From Bacteroidales bacterium (GTDB lineage Bacteria > Bacteroidota > Bacteroidia > Bacteroidales > 4484-276), in assembly GCA_029934065.1 (NCBI GenBank), contig JAOZMX010000004.1, forward strand, positions 1 to 52,535: a DNA stretch of 52,535 nt. Direction: 5' to 3'. The notes beneath the pieces are model-generated. The model ran no database searches, was not told the origin of the DNA, and saw only the letters and a list, made by a program, of their open reading frames with translations. The translations under genes were made by a program, and so were the position numbers. Below, in pieces: positions 105-15,227 of the stretch. Positions within the stretch are counted from its first letter, which is position 1; each line of letters begins with the position of its first letter.

Positions 105-144
105 AACGCTGCCGTAAATCAACTTACGGCAGCGTTTTTATTTT
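105..144. terminator. bidirectional intrinsic terminator
   Basis: A perfect 13-bp stem (105-117 with 124-136) closes a 6-base loop. A T-rich run follows on the plus strand and, read in the other direction, a T-run follows on the minus strand. It lies about 30 bases past the stop codon of the minus-strand gene ending at 167, so it is the likely end of that transcription unit. Confidence 0.85.
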
Positions 145-166: not shown

Positions 167-1072
167 CTAATGTTTTACAATTAATCTTCCAATGGCTGAT
201 CTTTCACCCGCTTTGACCTTGACAATATAAAGCCCGTTCGTTAAACCGCTTACATCAATGGTTACGGAAAACAATCCGGCAGGAGCATTTTCGGCATCCT
301 TTGTCAGCACCTCAATTCCGTCTTTATCAAATACCTGATAACCAATGTTTGATTCCTCCTCCAACTGTACCGAGAACTGCACCTCTCCGGATGCCGGATT
401 GGGATAAATGTTGAAGTTCATATTATCTTCCATGATATTCTGCCGGTTGAAAAACGGCAACGGCTCATCGGGATTCCAAAGCAGAAAAACATTGGGTACC
501 AACAATTTCCCGAACGGCATACCCTGTTTCCCATACATGCCTTTTTTACCGTGTTTATTTTTGCCGTTTTTCATCATCCCCGGGCGGGTATCGGCATTAG
601 GACAATTTCTGCTGACGATTTGTCTGATCTCCTTTCGCCATTGATCAACCTGCGGCCGCACCTCATCCAGCAAAGCCATGATGGTGGCATCGTGGTTTTC
701 TTCCATTTCAGCCACTTCGTTCATCAGTGAATGCAACTGATTCCGCGTTTGACGCATGGCTTTGCGCTGCTCAAGCGATGGTGTTCCTTCCTGGGCACGC
801 ATACTTTTCATCTCTTCACGACGTTGCTGGCGCAGCGTTTGCAGTTGGCTGCGGATCTCCGCAAGACGGTCTTTTTCCGTCTGCGAAAGTTCCTTGTCCA
901 GTTGCTGGCGTTGCACTTTCATCACGGGAAGGATGTTTTTTTCGACATAATTTTTAATTGCCGGGTTCTGGAAGCATCGCCCCTGCCCCATCATTGCCTG
1001 ATTCTGGGCATAGCTAAAAGTTGTCATTACAACCAATGCCATTAAAGCTACTATTGCAATCGTTTTTTTCAT
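167..1072 (-). CDS. Spy/CpxP-like secreted protein with T9SS C-terminal sorting domain
   Basis: This is a 301-residue protein. Residues 1-22 form a signal peptide. Residues about 30-160 are a charged helical region rich in Gln, Arg, Glu and Met, resembling the periplasmic Spy/CpxP stress chaperones, with single cysteines near both ends (about 33 and 157). A basic Gly/Lys/Met/His-rich linker follows at about 165-190. The last 80 or so residues are a type A T9SS sorting domain with the YPNPASG motif, an NGLYIVKV segment and a basic final stretch. By family knowledge the tail sends the protein through the T9SS to the cell surface or outside. It is the last gene of a minus-strand cluster led by an ECF sigma factor, 303 bases after the previous gene, so an envelope-stress role is likely but inferred. 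A T9SS tail on a Spy-like protein is unusual. A terminator follows at 105-144. Confidence 0.75.
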   Translation of the reverse strand: MKKTIAIVALMALVVMTTFSYAQNQAMMGQGRCFQNPAIKNYVEKNILPVMKVQRQQLDKELSQTEKDRLAEIRSQLQTLRQQRREEMKSMRAQEGTPSLEQRKAMRQTRNQLHSLMNEVAEMEENHDATIMALLDEVRPQVDQWRKEIRQIVSRNCPNADTRPGMMKNGKNKHGKKGMYGKQGMPFGKLLVPNVFLLWNPDEPLPFFNRQNIMEDNMNFNIYPNPASGEVQFSVQLEEESNIGYQVFDKDGIEVLTKDAENAPAGLFSVTIDVSGLTNGLYIVKVKAGERSAIGRLIVKH

Positions 1073-1375
1073 TTTGTTTAATTTTTAGTGTTTAACTTCG
1101 ATTTTCTGTGTTTTGCATATTTGACATCGTTGTGAGAAATTTTATTCCATGGAGAGAAAAAACAAATACCAATTCATCTAATGCTTCAGAGCGGGTCGCC
1201 TTCTTTGGTTATTTTTTTGGCGAGACAAGAAAGTAACAATAAATTGAATCCTTTCAGGGTTCTTCACCACACACAACTCATGTTTCCCGACGACGGAGGT
1301 AATTCATTTTAAACCACTTTGTGGTTTTTACGGCTTTTGTTTAAAATCAAAAAACCGTAACAAAACAAGAAAAGA
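1073..1375. other. 303-base intergenic stretch with repeat-like sequence
   Basis: No gene is visible. Positions 1311-1327 form a short palindrome (7-bp arms, 3-base loop). Positions 1328-1360 contain an imperfect inverted repeat with arms of about 12 bases and no T-run. Positions 1190-1240 resemble a dispersed intergenic repeat I recall from other Bacteroidota genomes; that resemblance is from memory and unverified. No TAnnTTTG promoter was found for the downstream minus-strand gene, so it may be read through from the sigma operon. Confidence 0.45.
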
Positions 1376-1807
1376 TCAATTTCCGGACGGAGGTCTTTTG
1401 TGCGCCGGTCGTTTCATTCTGTGTGGAGGCGGTTTCCGGTGGGGATTACCTTTCCATGAGCCTTCGAACCTTTTGAATGTATTTTCCATTCTTGTTATTT
1501 GCTCATCCGTCAGATAAGGTTTCAGCTCCTTCATCATTTCAATGTGAATGTCTCTGATCTCGGAGCGCGACCTTGCAACCGATTCATGAATTTCAACGGA
1601 ATACTTTTCAAGGATGGGATCAATGGCTTTGCGTTGTGCGGGATCGGGCCGCATGATATGATAGATACTGTTCTTAAATCCTGTGGACGTTCCCATCTTC
1701 ACAAAAGATTGTATTTTCTTTCTTGTCAGGTGTGCATTGGTCAGAAATCCGATGGCAAACCCGATGATAAGCGTTGCTATGATGACTATAACCGATCTTG
1801 ATCTCAT
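1376..1807 (-). CDS. membrane-anchored Spy/heavy-metal-sensor-like periplasmic protein
   Basis: This is a 143-residue protein with one N-terminal membrane segment (about residues 6-24) and a helical periplasmic part. The region at about 52-115 has the pattern of the Spy/CpxP/CnrX-like fold seen in bacterial metal and envelope-stress sensors: a segment on residues to be counted back as a helix-turn-helix pair around PDPAQRKAIDPIL and LTDEQITRME. The C-terminus is a low-complexity tail rich in Pro, Lys, Arg and His that could bind metal or interact with the envelope. It lies 20 bases downstream of the anti-sigma gene. By analogy with similar operons it may modulate the anti-sigma factor; this is inference. 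The function is not proven by sequence alone. Confidence 0.65.
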   Translation of the reverse strand: MRSRSVIVIIATLIIGFAIGFLTNAHLTRKKIQSFVKMGTSTGFKNSIYHIMRPDPAQRKAIDPILEKYSVEIHESVARSRSEIRDIHIEMMKELKPYLTDEQITRMENTFKRFEGSWKGNPHRKPPPHRMKRPAHKRPPSGN

Positions 1808-1827
1808 AATTTCAGATGATTAAATGA

Positions 1828-2229
1828 TTAGTAATTAAACAATAAAAACTCGGAAACATATTCCGGTTGAACGGCATCCACACCCAGTATTGAGTCCAGT
1901 GAAATGGTACCACTGCTGAACACTGTGAACAGAAAGAGGATGACGGCAGCCACCAGCCCCGGCAATGCAATCCTTTTGAAAGCATACAAAAACGGGTTTT
2001 CAGACGGATTCTTTTCATCTGTTGCGATGCGTTCCATCACCCTGTCTGCAAAATGGTCATCGAAAGCATACCGCTCATCTTCCAGCAACCCCCTTAATTT
2101 GTCCAGGTGTTTTTTTTCCTGTTGCAGTTCGATATCCGCTTCCAATGCCTTATCCAGTCGTTCTTTTTCACCGGGAGAGAGCGTAGCATCGTAAGACCTT
2201 CTTAATAATTCAAGCAAAGTATTATCCAT
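1828..2229 (-). CDS. anti-sigma factor, single-pass membrane protein
   Basis: This is a 133-residue protein. The N-terminal 70 or so residues are a cytoplasmic helical region (LLRRSYDATLSPGEKERLDKAL and following) like the sigma-binding part of Bacteroidota anti-sigma factors. One membrane segment lies at about residues 90-107, followed by a short external tail of about 25 residues. No zinc-binding HxxxCxxC motif is present. It begins 2 bases after the stop of the sigma factor gene, indicating translational coupling, which is the main support for the assignment. It probably holds the sigma factor at the membrane until an envelope signal arrives. Confidence 0.75.
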   Translation of the reverse strand: MDNTLLELLRRSYDATLSPGEKERLDKALEADIELQQEKKHLDKLRGLLEDERYAFDDHFADRVMERIATDEKNPSENPFLYAFKRIALPGLVAAVILFLFTVFSSGTISLDSILGVDAVQPEYVSEFLLFNY

Positions 2230-2231
2230 GA

Positions 2232-2789
2232 TTATTCAATGATATGTTTCAATAATATTTTCAATTTTTCCTGTGCGCGCGAAAGCCGTGAAAGCACAGT
2301 CCCCATGGGCAGTTTCAGAATCTTTGCGGTCTCTTTGGTTGAATATCCCTGCAACATCCGCAATACGACCACACTTCTGAACTCAGGATTCAGTTGCTGC
2401 AACGCCTGATGAACTGCCTGTTTGGTATCGTACGCATCCTGTCTGTTTTCCTCATCTTTGATTTCCGGGTTTTCGTTATCGTTATTTTTTACAAATAAAT
2501 AATTCCGCCGCTGACGCCTTTTCAACTCATTAAGGGACAAATTGATCGCAATCCGGGTCAAATACGTGGCAACACCGGCTTCGCCCCTGAAATCGTTCAA
2601 TGCCCTGTAAAACCGGATAAAGACCTCCTGTCCCACATCATCGGCCTCACTGCACCTGCCGAGCATGCCGATCACCACACCGGCCACAGTTTGCTCATAC
2701 CTGCGTACCAGTTGCGAAAAAGCAACTTTATCACCCTTTTTGACTTTTTCAATCAATTTCCTGTCGTCCGGTTCCAAAATGTTTCTCAA
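2232..2789 (-). CDS. ECF-type RNA polymerase sigma factor
   Basis: This is a 185-residue protein with the normal ECF sigma-70 layout. Region 2 (about residues 20-90) includes the DDVGQEVFIRFYRAL helix and the LTRIAINLSLNELKRR segment used for core binding and -10 melting. A short acidic linker follows, then region 4 (about 130-180), with an LNPEFRSVVVLRMLQGYSTKE pattern (shown as separate motifs LNPEFR and GYSTKETAKIL) and a helix-turn-helix ending GTVLSRLSRAQEKL. It is the first gene of a four-gene minus-strand cluster with an anti-sigma factor and two Spy-like proteins, so envelope or metal stress is the likely signal. It is divergent from the fucosidase gene. Confidence 0.95.
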   Translation of the reverse strand: MRNILEPDDRKLIEKVKKGDKVAFSQLVRRYEQTVAGVVIGMLGRCSEADDVGQEVFIRFYRALNDFRGEAGVATYLTRIAINLSLNELKRRQRRNYLFVKNNDNENPEIKDEENRQDAYDTKQAVHQALQQLNPEFRSVVVLRMLQGYSTKETAKILKLPMGTVLSRLSRAQEKLKILLKHIIE

Positions 2790-2969
2790 CAGATCTTTGT
2801 TTTTGCTATTTTGACATCCATGCGTCTTGTTTTATTCCCGGTAAAATTAATCACTATAACATTATTAACACTGTCGCGTGAAAAATTCTTTTTGATTCAA
2901 CCGTTTCGGTTTTCTTTTTTTTTACTTTTACAAAAAAAAATGAAGTCAATTCTTTATTTCATCGGTCAA

Positions 2970-4484
2970 ATGAATAAAAATAAAAGATCTTTACCCACTT
3001 TGCATTTACACCGGTTATTTTTCAAATCCATTTTTTCGTTGTTTATTTTCTTTTTTGCGATACCGGCAATCGCACAGGAGAGCGACAAATATGTTCCCGA
3101 AACGGATACCCTTGTTTTGGAGAAACTTGAACAATGGCAGGATTTAAAATTCGGTTTGCTGATGCACTGGGGGGCATACAGTCAGTGGGGCATTGTGGAA
3201 TCGTGGTCGATATGTCCCGAAGATTACGGCTGGTGCCAACGGAAAAAGGGAAACTATCAGGATTATTTCGAATATGTAAAAGATTATGAAAATCTGAAAA
3301 CAACTTTTAACCCGGTGGATTTCGATCCGGCAAAATGGGCCGCTGCAGCCAAGAAAGCAGGGATGAAATATGTGGTTTTCACCACCAAACACCACGACGG
3401 ATTTTGCATGTTCGATACCAAATATACCGATTACAAGATCACCGATCCGGAATGTCCTTTCAGTAAAAACCCGAAAGCCAATATCGCGAAGGAAATTTTC
3501 AACGCATTCAGAAACGAAGGATTATGGGCCGGTGCCTATTTTTCGAAACCCGACTGGCACAGCGATAATTACTGGGATCCTTATTTCCCGCCCATGGATC
3601 GAAATGTGAATTATGATCCCGACAAATATCCGGAGAAGTGGGAAAAATTTGTGGAATACACCCACAATCAACTTATGGAGTTGTGTACGGATTACGGCAA
3701 ATTGGACATCCTGTGGCTGGACGGCGGCTGGGTGCGTAAAAAGACCAAAGACGAGATCAGGAATACTTACATCAACCGATTGAAAAATGTAGGTTCAGGA
3801 TTTGTGATCACAGACATGATCAATCAGGATATCCGGATGAACGAACTGGTGGAACAGGTCAGAGCGGCACAACCGGGGATTATTGTTGTTGACCGGGCGG
3901 TACACGGCAAGAACCAGAATTACCTGACACCCGAAAACCGTGTTCCCGACAAGGCACTGCCCTACCCGTGGGAATCCTGTATCATTGCCGGCGGCGGATG
4001 GTCGTGGGTACCCAATGCCAAATACATGAGTCCCCGCAAACTGGTGCATCTGCTCGTGGATATCGTTGCCAAAGGAGGCAACCTCCTGCTCAACATTGCT
4101 CCCGGTCCCGACGGCACCTGGGATGACGGAGCCTATGCATTGCTTAACGAAATGGGTGACTGGATGGAAGTCAACAGCGAAGCGATCTACGACACAAGAA
4201 GTGTCAAACCGTACAAAGAAGGGCAAGTTTGTCTGACCCGGAAAAAAGACGGGACGGTATATGCCGTTTATCTTGCCGGAAAGGATGAAAACAATCCTCC
4301 GTCAAAGATATGGCTTTCGTCTCTGCAACCGTCGGAAAACGCAACGGTAACATTACTTGGGTGGAATAAGCCTCTGAAATGGGAAAAATCAGGAAACGGT
4401 TTTTACGCGGATATTCCCGAAAAGTTCAGAAAAATACCGCCTTGCAAATATGCGTGGACAATAAAAATATCAACTATTCAATAA
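2970..4484 (+). CDS. secreted alpha-L-fucosidase, GH29
   Basis: From the chosen start the protein has 504 residues. Residues 1-36 form a signal peptide ending in AIAQ. The GH29 TIM barrel starts at about residue 55 (FGLLMHWGAYSQWG). HHDGF is at about 141-145, and the LDILWLDGG strand places the catalytic nucleophile at about Asp251. A later GGNLLLNIAPGPDG segment is also typical of GH29. The acid/base residue is not conserved across the family and is not assigned. The reading frame is open upstream into the sigma gene; ATG at 2940 is an alternative start that would add 10 residues, but the signal peptide is complete from 2970. It releases terminal fucose from glycans in the periplasm or on the surface. 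There is no T9SS tail. The next gene starts 17 bases downstream. Confidence 0.9.
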   Translation: MNKNKRSLPTLHLHRLFFKSIFSLFIFFFAIPAIAQESDKYVPETDTLVLEKLEQWQDLKFGLLMHWGAYSQWGIVESWSICPEDYGWCQRKKGNYQDYFEYVKDYENLKTTFNPVDFDPAKWAAAAKKAGMKYVVFTTKHHDGFCMFDTKYTDYKITDPECPFSKNPKANIAKEIFNAFRNEGLWAGAYFSKPDWHSDNYWDPYFPPMDRNVNYDPDKYPEKWEKFVEYTHNQLMELCTDYGKLDILWLDGGWVRKKTKDEIRNTYINRLKNVGSGFVITDMINQDIRMNELVEQVRAAQPGIIVVDRAVHGKNQNYLTPENRVPDKALPYPWESCIIAGGGWSWVPNAKYMSPRKLVHLLVDIVAKGGNLLLNIAPGPDGTWDDGAYALLNEMGDWMEVNSEAIYDTRSVKPYKEGQVCLTRKKDGTVYAVYLAGKDENNPPSKIWLSSLQPSENATVTLLGWNKPLKWEKSGNGFYADIPEKFRKIPPCKYAWTIKISTIQ

Positions 4485-4501
4485 CCAATAAATTTATTCT
4501 G

Positions 4502-5038
4502 ATGAAAACAAAAAGAATTCTTTTCGCGGTATTGGTGTTGTTTTTAACAGTTAATGCAAATTCACAACAATTTACTCATGCTAACGGCGCCGGAGGAACT
4601 GGTTCCGATCGGGGATATGACATCGGAACGGATTCCAACGGGAACATGTACGTTTGCGGATGGTTTTCGGGAACGGCGCAGTTCGACACGGAGACCCTCG
4701 TCAGTGCCGGCGAAAATGATATTTTTATTGTCACCATTCCCGGTTCCTCACAGGGAATTTCCGGAAAATCACCCTACGGACAATTGACCGTTCACCCCAA
4801 TCCGGCATTCGATCATCTGACGGTACATACGGGAAACCTTTTTCAATCCTCCGGCATTTTGCAATATCAGATAACGGATATTTCGGGAAAAACCAGGCTT
4901 GCAGCCTCGCAAGAGTTACAAACCAACGGTGAAGGTATCATACAAATCGACATTTCATCACTCGGTGCAGGCATTTATCTTTTAAAGATTTTCAATAAAA
5001 ATGTCGCTTTTATGGGTAAATTTGTCGTCGGAAAATAA
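4502..5038 (+). CDS. short SBBP-repeat protein with T9SS sorting domain, probably internally deleted
   Basis: This is a 178-residue protein. Residues 1-21 form a signal peptide. Residues about 24-75 contain a single SBBP-type beta-propeller repeat (DRGYDIGTDSNGNMYVCGWF, then a GTAQFDT segment). This runs almost directly into a T9SS type A sorting domain (about 95-178) with HPNPAFD, a GAGIYLLKI segment and a basic end. SBBP proteins normally carry many repeats, so one blade joined straight to the sorting tail suggests an internal deletion that kept the frame. It lies 17 bases after the fucosidase gene and may be co-transcribed. Whether the product folds is unknown. Confidence 0.7.
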   Translation: MKTKRILFAVLVLFLTVNANSQQFTHANGAGGTGSDRGYDIGTDSNGNMYVCGWFSGTAQFDTETLVSAGENDIFIVTIPGSSQGISGKSPYGQLTVHPNPAFDHLTVHTGNLFQSSGILQYQITDISGKTRLAASQELQTNGEGIIQIDISSLGAGIYLLKIFNKNVAFMGKFVVGK

Positions 5039-9087: not shown

Positions 9088-10332
9088 ATGAAAAGCCAGC
9101 TTATCTTTGAAAACATCCGGATATCATTCGAAGCCATCAGAAGTCACATGCTCAGGTCGGTGCTTACGGTGCTGATCATTGCTTTCGGCATCATGGCCAT
9201 TGTGGGTATTTTTACCGCCATCAGTGCCCTGGAACACAGCCTGGCGGAAAATCTGATGATGATGGGATCGAATACTTTTATGATCAAAAACAGAAGTTCC
9301 CGCATCCAGATCGGACATAAAGTAAAAAGGGCAAAATATTATCAACCCATTCGTTTCAAAGAGGCCATGGCTTTCAAAGAACAATTTGCATTTCCGTGCA
9401 AAGTGTCGGTGTTCACCTATGCCACCGGTACTGCCACGCTGAAATATAAATCTGAAAAAACCAATCCCAATATTTTGGTCATCGGCACAGATGAAAATTA
9501 CATTGAGACCTCGGGAAACGAGATCGCACAGGGGCGGAACTTTTCACCCAACGAGGTCTATTCCGGAGCACATGTTGCCGTTATCGGTAGCGAAATTGCC
9601 CGGAATCTTTTCAAAGGAAAAACCGACCCCATCGGAAAGATCATTTCCATCGGCGGCGGAAAATACCGGGTGATCGGTGTGATCAAAGAAAAAGGTGCCG
9701 GCATGGGGTTCACGCCCGACCGGCATTGCCTGTTGCCCATCAACAATGCCAGACAGTATTTTTCCTATCCCAACATGTCGTTCACCATCAATGTAATGCC
9801 CGATGATGTTTCGGCGGTGGATGCCGCCGTGGGCGAAGCAACGGGGCTGTTCAGGATCATCCGGAAAAACAAATTGTGGGAAGAAAATGATTTTGAGATT
9901 TCCAAAAGCGATCAACTTATCAAGATGATCTTTGAAAATACAGCCAAGATCAAATCGGCGGCCATGTGGATCGGCATCATCACTATCCTGGGAGCAGCCA
10001 TTGGATTGATGAACATCATGCTGGTGTCGGTGACGGAGCGTACGCGGGAAATCGGTATCCGGAAATCCATCGGTGCCACGCAACTCACCATCCGCAATCA
10101 GTTTTTGATCGAGTCCATAGTGATTGCACAAATCGGCGGCCTTTTCGGAATCGTCCTCGGCATTCTCATCGGAAACGTCGTTTCCATCCTGCTTCATTCC
10201 AATTTTATCATCCCGTGGCTGTGGGTGTTTGTGGGCATTGCAATTTGTTTTGTGGTAGCACTGCTTTCAGGTATCATCCCTGCACAAAAAGCCGCCAGAC
10301 TTGATCCCATCGAAGCCTTGCGATATGAGTAA
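9088..10332 (+). CDS. MacB/FtsX-type ABC transporter permease
   Basis: From ATG 9088 the protein has 414 residues. One membrane segment lies near residues 22-45, followed by a MacB-type periplasmic core domain (about 50-260) and three C-terminal membrane segments (about 290-405). The family ending [15 protein letters not shown] is present. Such permeases work with a separate ATPase (LolD/MacB-like) and often a membrane-fusion protein, moving lipoproteins, peptides or drugs. No partner gene is adjacent, so the substrate is unknown. An in-frame TTG at 9079 exists, but ATG 9088 fits the family N-terminus better. Confidence 0.9.
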
Positions 10333-10387
10333 AATAAAACAAGTCGTTTCTGAAATCAGGTAAAAATCGTAATTGACAACGGGAAAT

Positions 10388-11536
10388 ATGACGGGAATTA
10401 TTCTTGCCGGCGGAAAAAGTACACGGATGGGCAGCGAAAAGGGACTGATCCCCTTTCGCGGGAAACCGATGATCGAATATGCGGTAGATGTTTTAAGACC
10501 TTTTTGTGATGAAATACTCATTTCGGCCAATACTTCTTCCTTTGATTATCTGGGATTCGACGTTGTAAAAGATATCTTTCCTCACTCGGGCCCCATGGGA
10601 GGTATCTATACCGGATTGACGAAATCAATATCGGATAAAAATTTTGTGCTTTCCTGCGACATTCCCCTGATTGATCAAAATACCATCCGGCTGTTGATGG
10701 AGATGGCGGAAGGATGCGATGTCACCGTTCCCTGGCACGGAGACAATTTGTTTGAACCGCTTTGCGCAATCTATCACAAGAGCGTACTTCCGGTTATGGA
10801 ACAACAAATGCGGGCAGGCAACTTCAAACTGCCGGACATGTTCAAAAAGATCAATTTATGCAAGATCAAAACAGGAACCAATAACGGCATTAACGCGGAG
10901 CTTTTTTTTAATGTCAACTCGAAAGAAGATTTGATGCAACTGGAAAAGAAAGGGATTGCGGAACCGGATGCCCCGAGAGCCGGTACAATATCAACAGTGG
11001 AACATTTGCCGAATTTATTACTGATCGCCGGCGCAGGCCGCAATACGGGCAAAACCACCCTTGCCTGTGCAATCATCCGGCAAATATCACGGGGAAATAA
11101 AGTGGCAGCTATCAAAATTTCGCCGCACCCTCATCGTCAAAACCCACAACAAAAGATCATTGAAGAAACCTCCCGCTATATGATCATAGAAGAAACCGAC
11201 AAGCACACTGCGAAAGACAGCTCACGAATGTTGCGGGCCGGAGCCCACCGGGTGTATTACCTTCAAAGCACGGACCGCCATATCCGGATGCCGTTCAATA
11301 AAATAATGGAAATGATCCCGTCCGGCACTGCCGTTGTTTGCGAGTCGGGAGCATTGCTCAATGAGGTCAGGCCCGGCCTTTTCCTGATGCTGAACCGCAA
11401 AGGAGAAAGCACCGTCAGGAAAGGGATTGATCAACTCCCCTACCCGCCCGACCAAAGAATCGTTTTCGACGGGAAGGATTTTGATGCGGATATCACCAAA
11501 ATAAGTTTCCGCAACGATAAGTGGTATTACGAATGA
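10388..11536 (+). CDS. MobA-MobB fusion (molybdenum cofactor guanylyltransferase plus GTP-binding domain)
   Basis: From ATG 10388 the protein has 382 residues. Residues 1 to about 190 are a MobA nucleotidyltransferase with LAGGKSTRMGSEKG at 6-19 and an SCDIPLI segment near 89-95 holding the metal-binding Asp. Residues about 205-382 are a MobB-like P-loop domain with GAGRNTGKTT at 215-224 and an AKDSSRMLRAGA segment. MobA joins GMP to molybdopterin; MobB is an accessory GTP-binding protein that is usually separate. tatC follows on the same strand after 154 bases, which fits export of folded molybdoenzymes by Tat, but no molybdoenzyme gene is in the window. The ORF opens at a TTG at 10373; ATG 10388 aligns with the MobA start. 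Confidence 0.85.
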   Translation: MTGIILAGGKSTRMGSEKGLIPFRGKPMIEYAVDVLRPFCDEILISANTSSFDYLGFDVVKDIFPHSGPMGGIYTGLTKSISDKNFVLSCDIPLIDQNTIRLLMEMAEGCDVTVPWHGDNLFEPLCAIYHKSVLPVMEQQMRAGNFKLPDMFKKINLCKIKTGTNNGINAELFFNVNSKEDLMQLEKKGIAEPDAPRAGTISTVEHLPNLLLIAGAGRNTGKTTLACAIIRQISRGNKVAAIKISPHPHRQNPQQKIIEETSRYMIIEETDKHTAKDSSRMLRAGAHRVYYLQSTDRHIRMPFNKIMEMIPSGTAVVCESGALLNEVRPGLFLMLNRKGESTVRKGIDQLPYPPDQRIVFDGKDFDADITKISFRNDKWYYE

Positions 11537-11690
11537 TAAATTTCAACAAGCCGCACTCAAATCAGTGAATAATGCGGAAACAAGCCAAATTGCAACCGGA
11601 AGTAAAGATTTTTCGGGAAACACATCTTTGGAATCATTAATTTTGGCACCGGAAAATGATTCAAATAACACATGAACCAAGGTATCTGAC

Positions 11691-12542
11691 ATGCCGGAAG
11701 TGATTACAACCAAGCCTGCAAACAAGCCACCACCCAAGCGGAAGGAGCCGAAAATGCGCAATTTCTGGGAACACCTTGAAAAGTTGCGCCGGCACCTTAT
11801 CAGGGCACTGACGGCCATGGTACTGTTTTCCGTTCTCGCATTTCTGAACCGGCATTTTATTTTCGACACAATTCTCCTCTCGCCACGCAATCCCGGTTTT
11901 CCTACCAATGTCTTCCTGTGCAATATCGGCAAACTGCTAAATGTCGAATCCCTGTGTTTCAATACCGAAGCGCTCAAGATCATCAACGTCAGCATGTCGG
12001 GACAGTTTCTTACGCACCTTTATGTTTCGTTCATTGCCGGAACCATCGTGGCATTTCCCTATGTGCTTTATGAAATATGGAATTATGTAGCAGGTATATT
12101 GAAAGTCAGAACAACCAAAGCTGCCGTTCTTCCGGTAGTGGGTGGGACAGTACTGTTTGCCTCCGGTGTAGTGTTCAGTTATTTTTTAATTGTTCCGCTG
12201 ACGGTAAACTTTCTGGGGAGCTATCATGTGAGCGGCGAAGTGCAGAACAGTATCACATTGAGTTCCTACATCGGAACGGTATCTTCCCTTGTGCTCGGCG
12301 TGGGAATTGTCTTTGAGCTGCCCATCGTGATGTACCTTCTTGCCAGACAGGGGCTTGTAACACCGGAGTTTCTCAAAACCAAAAGAAAATATACCATCGT
12401 GATACTGCTCACCATCTCGGCCATCATTACACCGCCGGACATTATCAGTCAGATCATGGTATGTCTGCCTTTGATTTTGCTTTACGAGATCAGTATCATG
12501 GTTGCTTCGGTGGCAGGCAGAAAAAGCGAATCTTCCGTATAA
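11691..12542 (+). CDS. tatC: twin-arginine translocase subunit TatC
   Basis: This is a 283-residue integral membrane protein with about six membrane helices. The N-terminal FWEHLEKLRRHLIRAL segment is the conserved TatC cytoplasmic start, and FPYVLYEIWNYVAGIL matches the conserved region after the second helix. A Bacteroidota-type insertion of about 45 residues lies in the first periplasmic loop (NPGFPTNVFLCNIGKLL and following, with two Cys). TatC recognises twin-arginine signal peptides and forms the core receptor of the translocase. No tatA/tatB is adjacent. The gene ends 3 bases from a convergent minus-strand gene, with no room for a terminator between them. Confidence 0.95.
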   Translation: MPEVITTKPANKPPPKRKEPKMRNFWEHLEKLRRHLIRALTAMVLFSVLAFLNRHFIFDTILLSPRNPGFPTNVFLCNIGKLLNVESLCFNTEALKIINVSMSGQFLTHLYVSFIAGTIVAFPYVLYEIWNYVAGILKVRTTKAAVLPVVGGTVLFASGVVFSYFLIVPLTVNFLGSYHVSGEVQNSITLSSYIGTVSSLVLGVGIVFELPIVMYLLARQGLVTPEFLKTKRKYTIVILLTISAIITPPDIISQIMVCLPLILLYEISIMVASVAGRKSESSV

Positions 12543-12545
12543 ATA

Positions 12546-13094
12546 TCAAAGCAATCCGGCGTGGCGCAACAATTCTGCAAAATCGGGATCTTTGCTGGCT
12601 TGTTGCTTGCTGATCATTTCAAGTTTTGTTACACGTTCTTCGAGACTCATGGTTTTGGTTTGAACCGGATTGAGTGCGGTTCGTCTGTCCCACACGATAT
12701 ATCCGAACAGGAACAGCATGATGGCAATCAATATCCCAAATCCCCAGTAAAGGGTTTCGATCTTGGATTCAAGGGCTTCAAATCTTTGATCTATCGCTTC
12801 AAACCTTTGATCTATTGCAACAAATCTTTGATCTATTGCAACAAATCTTTGGTCAATAGCAACAAACCCTTGATCAACTGCCTCAAACCGTGCATTCATT
12901 TCATTCCGAAGCGATTCCATTTCATTCCGGAGAGAGCCTATTTTCGTTGACATTTCTTCCCTTAAAGCATCCACTTTTTCTTCGGTACGCATGATCCTGT
13001 CGCGATCCTCCAGTGTGAAAGGAACCTCGTGAGATTGTGCGAAAATTTGAACAATCAGCAAAGAAAAAATAATGATCAAAAAAAACTTTTTCAT
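12546..13094 (-). CDS. secreted or membrane coiled-coil protein with heptad repeats
   Basis: This is a 182-residue protein of unknown function. Residues 1-19 form a signal peptide, residues about 30-115 a long coiled coil, and a membrane segment lies at about 116-135 followed by a second short helical region. The coiled coil contains five near-identical 7-residue units of the type RFVAIDQ, encoded by a 21-bp tandem repeat at 12778-12882. The layout resembles small DUF1640-like coiled-coil proteins, but I cannot assign a family. It is transcribed alone from a TAnnTTTG promoter at 13118-13125. Confidence 0.7.
   Translation of the reverse strand: MKKFFLIIIFSLLIVQIFAQSHEVPFTLEDRDRIMRTEEKVDALREEMSTKIGSLRNEMESLRNEMNARFEAVDQGFVAIDQRFVAIDQRFVAIDQRFEAIDQRFEALESKIETLYWGFGILIAIMLFLFGYIVWDRRTALNPVQTKTMSLEERVTKLEMISKQQASKDPDFAELLRHAGLL
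12778..12882. repeat. 21-bp tandem repeat, five units, inside a coiled-coil gene
   Basis: Five consecutive 21-base units encode the heptad RFxAIDQ or variants. Units two to four are nearly identical at DNA level and the outer ones have diverged. Copy number could change by slippage without losing the frame. Confidence 0.85.
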
Positions 13095-13117
13095 TTTAGC
13101 GAAAGCTTATTACCCTG

Positions 13118-13125
13118 CAAAGGTA
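13118..13125 (-). promoter_or_regulatory. Bacteroidota -7 promoter element of the coiled-coil gene
   Basis: On the minus strand this reads TACCTTTG, matching TAnnTTTG, 23 bases before the start codon at 13094. Confidence 0.55.
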
Positions 13126-13145
13126 AAAAATATTTTAATCAAATC

Positions 13146-15227
13146 CTAATACGATCCGTTGTATTTTCTGATAAACCATTCGGTGGCAAGCAGTCCCAGT
13201 ATCAATAGCAGCACCCAGGGAATGTTGACAAGGTCTTTGTATCTTTTCTCGGTATAGGTGATTGTTTTGATATCCTCTCTCTTTTTCAGGATTTCGGGGA
13301 ATGCATCCATTTCCTGCAGCTGCAACATTTTTCCGTCGTGTTTTACCGCCAACTGATAAAGCAGCGTATGATCGGCAATCGTGTTCACCAGTTCGATATT
13401 CAAAGGTGAAACGGTAAATTCGCCGCTGACGGTATAGAGCATGTCACCCACTCTTACTTTGGCTTTGTAGGTATAATTGTCCACAGGCAACACCCCGGCA
13501 TTCAAATGGTAGGCATCGGCTGTTTTTGAGAAAACATAGTCGAAATTCTTTCCCTGACTGTTGGTGATCTTCATCTCAACTTCCGGTTCGTTGACCGGTT
13601 CGTAACTCTGATTATAGACCTCGGCATCAAACTCAACCGGCTGGTTCTCCATAAAATTGTTCTCACCCGTAATCCTGAAAAAACTCTTGTTCACCTTCAC
13701 CGACAGAAACTGCACCATTTTGGTGATCAATTCATTGAAAGCATCATGATTTCCGGTCTTAAGATAATCTTCCAGACGCCAGCGCCAGATGCCTTCACCT
13801 GCTATTACCCCGGATTTTTCGTTCAGGGTCTGACTGAACAGCACCAACGGATAATTGGTAACGAGAGATTGAATCTTTTGATAAAACAAGGCATTGGCCG
13901 AGGTCAGGACTTTATATTCACCGAAAGGAGCAATCAAAGGCGGAAAATTATCTGCTGCATTTCTGATCTTGTCATCAATGGTAAATAATGCAAAATCCTC
14001 GTTAAGCACAGGCACCGCTTCATTAAAGCTGTTCTCTTCGGCCATGATGCGTATCCCGGCTTCCTGGCGGTTGAACGCCGTAAAATCGGATTGCGAACCG
14101 AGAATGTAAAGCACCGGTATTTTATTTTTTTTGGCAGCGGCAATGACATTGGCCGCCATTTTTCCTTTGCCGGGCAACTGATGCAGGATCAAAAGATTGT
14201 ATTCTCCGACCTGACCGGTGAATTTGTTGACGGGGAAATAATCCACCTGATAATTGAAATTGCTTTCGATGGCCTCGCGTATGGCGGCAATGTCGGGATG
14301 AGGTGATAAAGAGAGCATCAAAACTTTTTGTTTCGAATCAAGCACATCAATAAAGATGTCCTGAACATTGTTGGCCGTGCTGATCTCATTTTCCAATGCA
14401 GCGATGCGGATGCGGTAGCGCTGCAGTCCTTCCTTTTTGGCATCAAGCCGAATGCGAATGGTTTGCGAAAAATTATCATCGGGGATGGAGAGATTTTGGG
14501 AAAAGACCGTTCCTTGCCCGTCGGTGACGGTCAATACGCTTTTCATCCCACCGCAAAGATGTGCTCCGATCTTCACTTCAACGGGGAACGAATTGCCCAG
14601 GTAAGCCATACGGTTGAAGTTCACCTTCCGGATAAAAATATCCTTTTGTACCGCCGTATCGCCAAGGGCCAAAGTATAAACCGGAAATTTTATCGCCGCG
14701 GAAGCATACAGCGGGTTAAGACCTTTGTTATACAATCCGTCGCTGGCCAGCAACATCGCTCCTACGTTACGGTTTGAATAGTTGGTGAGCAATTCGTCGA
14801 AAAGCGATGAAATGTCGGTTTGCCTTTCGGCAAACGAAAAATCAACATCCGGACGAACCTTATCACCGAATGAATAGATGCGTACCTGATAATCCTTCTC
14901 CAGTTGATTGGCCAATTTTCTGAAGCGCCCGGGATACTCCTTGCGGTAATAAGCCGAGTCCTTACCGATGAGCAACGACCGGGAGTTATCCTGTGCCAGA
15001 ATGATAACGGGCTTTTCGGTTGTGGTAAAGACACTCTTCAGCAAAGGATTCAACAGTAAAAAAGCGATCACAGCTATGGTTACCGCCCTGAACACCGCCA
15101 ACATCCGTTTCAGTGACAGCGGGAGGTCTCCCGACCTCTCCCGGTAATAAAGAATGGCGGCATAAGCAACACCAAGGAGGATGCAAACAATAACCCACCA
15201 GCCCGGATATTCTGTTACGATATTCAA
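13146..15227 (-). CDS. large membrane protein with VWA-like domain (uncharacterised)
   Basis: This is a 693-residue protein. Two N-terminal membrane segments (about residues 10-27 and 42-62) and one C-terminal segment (about 668-686) flank a large exposed region. Directly after the second segment, residues 80-84 read DNSRS, the D-x-S-x-S MIDAS metal site of von Willebrand A domains, followed by the rest of a VWA-like fold to about 260. A middle part (about 300-500) resembles the glutamine amidotransferase-like domain seen in such proteins, and a beta-rich region follows at about 510-640. Similar proteins occur near BatA-type genes in Bacteroidota, but no MoxR or Bat neighbours are seen here. 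The function is unknown; a scaffold or adhesion-like role in the envelope is a guess. Confidence 0.75.
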   Translation of the reverse strand: MNIVTEYPGWWVIVCILLGVAYAAILYYRERSGDLPLSLKRMLAVFRAVTIAVIAFLLLNPLLKSVFTTTEKPVIILAQDNSRSLLIGKDSAYYRKEYPGRFRKLANQLEKDYQVRIYSFGDKVRPDVDFSFAERQTDISSLFDELLTNYSNRNVGAMLLASDGLYNKGLNPLYASAAIKFPVYTLALGDTAVQKDIFIRKVNFNRMAYLGNSFPVEVKIGAHLCGGMKSVLTVTDGQGTVFSQNLSIPDDNFSQTIRIRLDAKKEGLQRYRIRIAALENEISTANNVQDIFIDVLDSKQKVLMLSLSPHPDIAAIREAIESNFNYQVDYFPVNKFTGQVGEYNLLILHQLPGKGKMAANVIAAAKKNKIPVLYILGSQSDFTAFNRQEAGIRIMAEENSFNEAVPVLNEDFALFTIDDKIRNAADNFPPLIAPFGEYKVLTSANALFYQKIQSLVTNYPLVLFSQTLNEKSGVIAGEGIWRWRLEDYLKTGNHDAFNELITKMVQFLSVKVNKSFFRITGENNFMENQPVEFDAEVYNQSYEPVNEPEVEMKITNSQGKNFDYVFSKTADAYHLNAGVLPVDNYTYKAKVRVGDMLYTVSGEFTVSPLNIELVNTIADHTLLYQLAVKHDGKMLQLQEMDAFPEILKKREDIKTITYTEKRYKDLVNIPWVLLLILGLLATEWFIRKYNGSY

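What the first reader, a model, noticed from the sequence alone, without database searches (positions are those of the whole stretch)
167..2789. ECF sigma/anti-sigma operon ending in a Spy-like protein with a T9SS sorting domain
The sequence shows a tightly linked sigma factor, membrane anti-sigma factor and membrane-anchored Spy-like protein, followed on the same strand by a second Spy-like protein whose C-terminus is a type A T9SS sorting domain. Spy/CpxP proteins are known as periplasmic chaperones or sensors. A T9SS tail would place this one outside the outer membrane. The inference is a stress circuit whose output protects or coats secreted or surface proteins rather than periplasmic ones. 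The Met/His/Lys/Gly-rich linker could also bind metal.
Basis: partly seen in the sequence, partly recalled or inferred. Interest (0 to 1): 0.7.

Follow-up and report, generated by a model that had tools for sequence, protein, structure and literature searches.

The report
Stress-sigma circuit driving an exported protein
A self-regulating stress-response switch, conserved across Bacteroidota, appears to turn on one main target besides itself, an uncharacterised helical protein that in this bacterium carries a tag sending it to the cell surface; the pairing looks real and new, but what the protein does there is still inferred.

Summary
On the minus strand lie an ECF sigma (2232-2789), a membrane anti-sigma (1828-2229), a membrane-anchored LTXXQ/Spy-superfamily protein (1376-1807) and, after 303 bp, a signal-peptide protein with a T9SS type A tail (167-1072). 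Order and tail recur in eight relatives of the same family. An ECF-type promoter, GGAATA-N16-TGTCAA, precedes both the sigma and the tailed gene: the only two copies in the window (0.03 expected), two of seven in the genome. It precedes the sigma in 29 of 34 related modules. In genomes with the module it also precedes unlinked homologues of the tailed gene; in 21 genomes without the module it never does.

Two corrections. The tailed protein's N-domain is not demonstrably Spy: it belongs to an unnamed helical family ending in an FLLW[ND] motif, sometimes fused to true LTXXQ domains, to the membrane sensor, or to T9SS tails. Metal binding by the linker is not conserved.

Best reading: an autoregulated CnrYXH-like envelope-stress circuit with one dedicated, T9SS-exported effector. 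The biochemical role (surface chaperone/coat, or feedback gauge of export) is inferred.

The parts
2811..2838 (-). ECF-type promoter of the sigma operon, GGAATAAAACAAGACGCATGGATGTCAA (-35 GGAATA, -10 TGTCAA)
   Evidence: 2 sites in the window, 0.03 expected; 29 of 34 modules carry the motif, mostly 40-49 bp before the estimated sigma start
2232..2789 (-). ECF sigma-70 factor (185 aa, TTG start)
1828..2229 (-). Membrane anti-sigma factor (133 aa, single transmembrane segment), 2 bp after the sigma gene
   Evidence: assigned mainly by position and conservation
1376..1807 (-). Membrane-anchored periplasmic LTXXQ-superfamily protein (143 aa), CnrX-like in position; likely sensor
1121..1148 (-). 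Second copy of the ECF-type promoter, GGAATAAAATTTCTCACAACGATGTCAA, in front of the T9SS gene
   Evidence: same element before gene 4 in most of the family
167..1072 (-). FLLW-family protein with T9SS type A tail (301 aa)
1007..1072 (-). Signal peptide (residues about 1-22)
   Evidence: Read directly from the sequence
605..979 (-). Predicted four-helix domain (residues about 32-156, pLDDT mostly 85-95)
473..487 (-). FLLWN motif, residues 196-200; overlaps a confidently placed short helix (residues 193-198) after the disordered linker; conserved in 41 of 46 family members
173..409 (-). T9SS type A C-terminal sorting domain (residues 222-300)
105..136 (.). Strong intrinsic terminator hairpin at the end of the unit

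Best explanation
This is an autoregulated envelope-stress circuit of CnrYXH-like layout with one dedicated, exported effector. Shown by sequence: an ECF sigma, a membrane anti-sigma and a membrane-anchored LTXXQ-superfamily protein form one conserved operon behind its own GGAATA-N16-TGTCAA promoter. The same promoter element precedes the gene of a secreted helical FLLW protein, next door here and elsewhere in the genome in other lineages. In this family the FLLW protein carries a signal peptide and a T9SS type A tail, in a genome with T9SS. Inferred: the membrane LTXXQ protein senses a periplasmic state and frees the sigma from the anti-sigma. The sigma then transcribes its own operon and the FLLW gene. 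The FLLW protein crosses the outer membrane by T9SS and acts at the surface or in the medium as a small helical binding or protective protein. The last step, its biochemical role, is the weakest.
For: Gene order and tail conserved in the window and 8 relatives. Promoter shared by both units: 2 in the window against 0.03 expected, 7 in the 3.64-Mb genome against 0 for the reversed pattern. Motif before the sigma in 29 of 34 modules. Motif before the FLLW gene in 7 of 9 module genomes outside the family, including three where the gene is unlinked, against 0 of 21 module-less genomes (Fisher 1.8e-5) and 1 of 183 control ORFs. Nine of ten genomes with a strong gene-3 homologue also hold an FLLW protein. 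Gene 3 matches the LTXXQ profile at 97.3%. In other lineages true LTXXQ domains occupy or join the gene-4 position (L039, L105), and gene 3 is fused to the FLLW domain (L106, L107, L109, L110).
Against: No expression, binding or localisation data exist here. Tail-less members exist in module genomes (f172), so export is not part of the core logic. Module-less members stand alone under a different element. Related genomes are not independent samples, so the P values overstate the evidence. The promoter patterns were defined after inspection. One family genome, G004, has the module without gene 4, and G005 lacks a clear promoter before gene 4. Other sites in the genome may be real targets, so 'dedicated' is provisional.
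Confidence: 0.68

Rival explanations
1. Feedback gauge: the FLLW protein, while still in the periplasm, acts on the membrane LTXXQ sensor (as CpxP acts on CpxA). With a T9SS tail its periplasmic level rises when export is blocked, so the circuit reads T9SS flux.
For: In four genomes the FLLW domain is fused directly to the membrane sensor, which suggests they work together in the periplasm. A T9SS-tailed protein, PorA, is reported to feed into PorXY-SigP signalling in Porphyromonas gingivalis (PMC7712824).
Against: The circuit also runs with tail-less FLLW proteins (L104, L105, L107). T9SS component genes were not seen among promoter hits, though targets were only partly checked. No homology between PorA and this protein beyond the T9SS tail was found or tested.
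Confidence: 0.22
2. Exported Spy chaperone: the N-domain is a diverged Spy/CpxP cradle moved to the surface by a T9SS tail.
For: A true LTXXQ domain plus FLLW domain plus T9SS tail occurs in one protein, L108 (28.9 and 27.5 bits, both over cut-off). A short LTXXQ-like stretch aligns at 69-80% probability over 17-18 columns. The model is four-helical.
Against: No Pfam LTXXQ or Metal_resist match in any of nine family members. Profile match to LTXXQ 29.9%. Foldseek best E 2.7. Where LTXXQ is present it is a separate N-terminal domain, not the FLLW domain.
Confidence: 0.15
3. Metal-responsive circuit: gene 3 is a CnrX-type metal sensor and the linker of gene 4 binds metal outside the cell.
For: Layout resembles cnrYXH. 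LTXXQ relatives score on Metal_resist. Linkers are His/Met-rich in some f121 genomes.
Against: His is 0-20% of the linker and often absent. The invariant His88 of gene 3 in the family is not kept in other modules. No metal-efflux genes were recognised beside the modules in the loci read, though neighbours were not searched systematically.
Confidence: 0.08
4. Incidental neighbour: a T9SS gene happens to lie beside an unrelated sigma operon.
For: T9SS tails are common in this genome (at least 150), and the gap is 303 bp.
Against: Conserved adjacency and tail in 9 genomes, and the shared promoter even when unlinked.
Confidence: 0.03

Closest known systems
CnrYXH of Cupriavidus metallidurans (sigma CnrH, anti-sigma CnrY, membrane-anchored periplasmic sensor CnrX)
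   Same: ECF sigma, membrane anti-sigma and a membrane-anchored helical periplasmic protein together in one operon; CnrX metal binding is thought to switch CnrY and release CnrH (PMC4598750)
   Different: Order is sigma, anti-sigma, sensor; main extra target is a secreted FLLW protein with a T9SS tail, not metal efflux; metal sensing not indicated
Spy/CpxP (LTXXQ, PF07813)
   Same: Gene 3 is in this superfamily by profile comparison; true LTXXQ proteins take the gene-4 place in L039-L041 and are fused to the FLLW domain in L105 and L108
   Different: Gene 4's own domain gives no LTXXQ match and no Spy-like fold match; Spy is periplasmic, gene 4 has an export tail
PorXY-SigP/PorA of Porphyromonas gingivalis
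   Same: An ECF sigma linked functionally to a T9SS-tailed protein (PMC7712824)
   Different: There the sigma regulates T9SS machinery and is activated by PorX; here the sigma has its own anti-sigma, scores below the PG0214 family cut-off (75.8 against 130), and the cargo gene is the apparent target
T9SS type A cargo (TIGR04183/PF18962)
   Same: Signal peptide plus C-terminal sorting domain over curated cut-offs
   Different: Small cargo with a helical domain of unknown function, under its own sigma-type promoter

Membership tests
T9SS type A cargo | C-terminal sorting domain above curated cut-off | tested here: met
   TIGR04183 40.8 bits (cut-off 23), PF18962 47.1 (27)
T9SS type A cargo | Host genome encodes the T9SS sortase PorU | tested here: met
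   NF033707 1376.6 and 1347.8 bits against cut-off 420
T9SS type A cargo | Export across the outer membrane observed | not testable with these tools
   Needs fractionation
Spy/CpxP LTXXQ family (gene 4 N-domain) | Match to PF07813 or PF13801 at the gathering score | tested here: not met
   No such match in nine family members
Spy/CpxP LTXXQ family (gene 4 N-domain) | Spy-like fold | tested here: inconclusive
   Confident four-helix model, no Foldseek match with E under 1; VIA-align second look covers only Foldseek's own picks
LTXXQ superfamily (gene 3) | Match to PF07813 at the gathering score | tested here: not met
   One of ten members reaches E 0.05
LTXXQ superfamily (gene 3) | Profile-profile similarity to confirmed LTXXQ domains | tested here: met
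   hhalign 97.3%, E 1.7e-11 over 66 columns, controls 0.1-2.7%. The gene-3 profile also retrieves secreted LTXXQ proteins
CnrYXH-type ECF circuit | ECF sigma, membrane anti-sigma and membrane-anchored periplasmic protein in one operon | tested here: met
CnrYXH-type ECF circuit | Promoter of ECF type in front of the sigma operon (autoregulation) | tested here: met
   29 of 34 modules; (sequence evidence only)
CnrYXH-type ECF circuit | Conserved metal-ligand residues in the sensor | not tested
   No residue-level comparison with CnrX was made
SigP (PG0214) sigma family | NF058625 above its cut-off | tested here: not met
   75.8 bits against 130

The most novel reading that the evidence does not exclude
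The T9SS-tailed FLLW protein is a built-in export gauge. Made under its own sigma, it normally leaves through T9SS; when T9SS or the outer membrane fails, it stays in the periplasm and acts on the membrane LTXXQ sensor to which the same domain is fused in some species, so the cell measures outer-membrane export by whether one small cargo gets out.
Probability: 0.17. Interest if true: 0.85.

Novelty: new variant of a known kind. Interest (0 to 1): 0.62.

Why it matters
Envelope-stress responses are well mapped in Proteobacteria but poorly in Bacteroidota, where T9SS moves many surface proteins. Here is a phylum-wide ECF circuit with a readable promoter and a target that, in this family and in family f121, carries a T9SS export tail. 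It names a testable protein family (FLLW) for which no Pfam or NCBIfam family matched here. It also gives a way to ask whether Bacteroidota sense or protect the outer face of the cell with a dedicated stress sigma.

Tried and rejected
Sequence search of the PDB with gene-3 and gene-4 profiles gave only chance helical hits such as apolipoprotein A-I. Foldseek and VIA-align gave no credible fold for either model; Spy, CpxP and CnrX did not appear, which neither shows nor excludes kinship. A first whole-family hhalign score of 83.6% to LTXXQ was an artefact: one sequence, L105, had kept its own LTXXQ domain; after removal it fell to 69-80% over 17-18 columns. The search for related loci with the gene-4 alignment failed for lack of conserved stretches, so gene 3 was used. 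The idea that the linker is a conserved metal site was rejected on composition. Promoter hits elsewhere in the genomes mostly lie inside genes or match control numbers. A first class-wide search missed the module in G588 (against 87), so absence was rechecked with all candidates scored. Literature searches found no paper joining LTXXQ or Spy with T9SS; the library is partial.

Full report
What is there. On the minus strand of the first 2.9 kb lie four genes: an ECF sigma (2232-2789), a membrane anti-sigma-like protein (1828-2229), a membrane-anchored helical protein (1376-1807) and a secreted protein with a T9SS type A tail (167-1072). The first three are packed 2-20 bp apart. The fourth follows a 303-bp gap, and a strong terminator hairpin closes the unit at 105-136. 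The genome holds PorU-type sortases and at least 150 T9SS tails, so a tail alone is unremarkable here; its conserved place beside the sigma is not.

Conservation in the family. Among the other genomes of the same family, eight carry the same four genes in the same order with the tail intact. G004 has the first three genes and no fourth; G011 and the incomplete G001 gave no match. Identity of the fourth protein's N-part to the window copy is only 25-40%, so the architecture is old and kept.

What gene 3 is. No Pfam family claims it. Profile comparison with LTXXQ domains gives 97.3%, E 1.7e-11 over 66 columns, while unrelated controls give 0.1-2.7%. The profile also pulls out secreted proteins, several of which pass the LTXXQ cut-off. 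It is therefore an anchored member of the Spy/CpxP superfamily, placed like CnrX.

What gene 4 is. Its N-domain matches no Spy, CpxP or Metal_resist model, no PDB sequence and no PDB fold. The model has four confident helices, a disordered linker and a well-placed short helix at the FLLW motif. Profile searches over 395 class and 395 phylum genomes found a wider family: 46 proteins read here, 41 with the FLLW[ND]-like motif just before the T9SS tail or the C-terminus; 28 have a T9SS tail and 18 do not. In some, the domain follows a true LTXXQ domain (L105 38.7 bits; L108 28.9 bits, which also carries a T9SS tail at 27.5 bits). In four genomes (L106, L107, L109, L110) it is fused to the gene-3 membrane protein.

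The promoter. Upstream of the sigma and upstream of gene 4 lies the same ECF-type element, GGAATA-N16-TGTCAA. The window has these two and no others, where 0.03 are expected. The genome has seven, and none for the reversed pattern. A sigma-associated copy at a near-constant distance, mostly 40-49 bp before the estimated start, is present in 29 of 34 modules from across Bacteroidota. In module genomes outside the family the element also precedes the FLLW gene in 7 of 9, including three large genomes where that gene is far from the sigma. In 21 genomes with an FLLW gene but no module it is absent from all; the absence of the module was checked with all candidates scored, and three positive-control genomes were found. 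One of 183 control ORFs has it. Within one family, f121, the three module genomes have the element and the two module-less genomes do not. Module-less FLLW genes instead carry TTAAAC within 100 bp in 17 of 22 cases, against 10 of 187 controls, often with an NTC[TA]A box 17-18 bp on. These counts are not phylogenetically independent, and the patterns were read from the same data; the controls were scored with the same patterns.

Mechanism. Shown by sequence: gene linkage, shared promoter element, co-occurrence (9 of 10 genomes with a strong gene-3 homologue also hold an FLLW protein), export signals. Inferred: gene 3 senses a periplasmic state and governs the anti-sigma, by analogy with CnrX; the sigma transcribes its own operon and the FLLW gene; the product leaves by T9SS. 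Whether it then acts as a surface chaperone, coat or something else is unknown. The gene-3/FLLW fusions leave room for a periplasmic feedback role, which with a T9SS tail would make it a gauge of export. PorA of Porphyromonas gingivalis is a known case of a T9SS-tailed protein feeding into sigma signalling (PMC7712824), though by another pathway.

Verdict. The finding is a new variant of a known kind: a CnrYXH-like ECF circuit with an exported, previously unnamed effector family.

Noticed in passing
L098, L099, L101, L103, L111, L113-L115, L118, L121, L125 (upstream of FLLW genes): FLLW genes in genomes without the sigma module share a different upstream element, TTAAAC-N17/18-NTC[TA]A, 17 of 22 with TTAAAC against 10 of 187 controls; the regulator is unknown.
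   Followed up: partly
L106, L107, L109, L110: Module order differs: an LTXXQ-plus-FLLW-like protein precedes the sigma, and gene 3 is fused to an FLLW domain.
   Followed up: partly
G000 contig C66:6242-9544 and 10173-13475: Two full-length PorU-type T9SS sortase genes in tandem in the window's genome.
   Followed up: no
window 2910-5038: Divergent GH29 alpha-L-fucosidase and a small T9SS-tailed SBBP-repeat protein next to the module; the fucosidase neighbour also recurs in relatives G002, G006 and G010.
   Followed up: no
G000 contig C84:9414-9441 (L159): A third well-formed promoter site about 70 bp before a secreted/outer-membrane-like protein; possible further target.
   Followed up: no
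L053 (Ignavibacteria record): Sigma, anti-sigma and gene-3 homologue present but without the GGAATA-N16-TGTC element.
   Followed up: no
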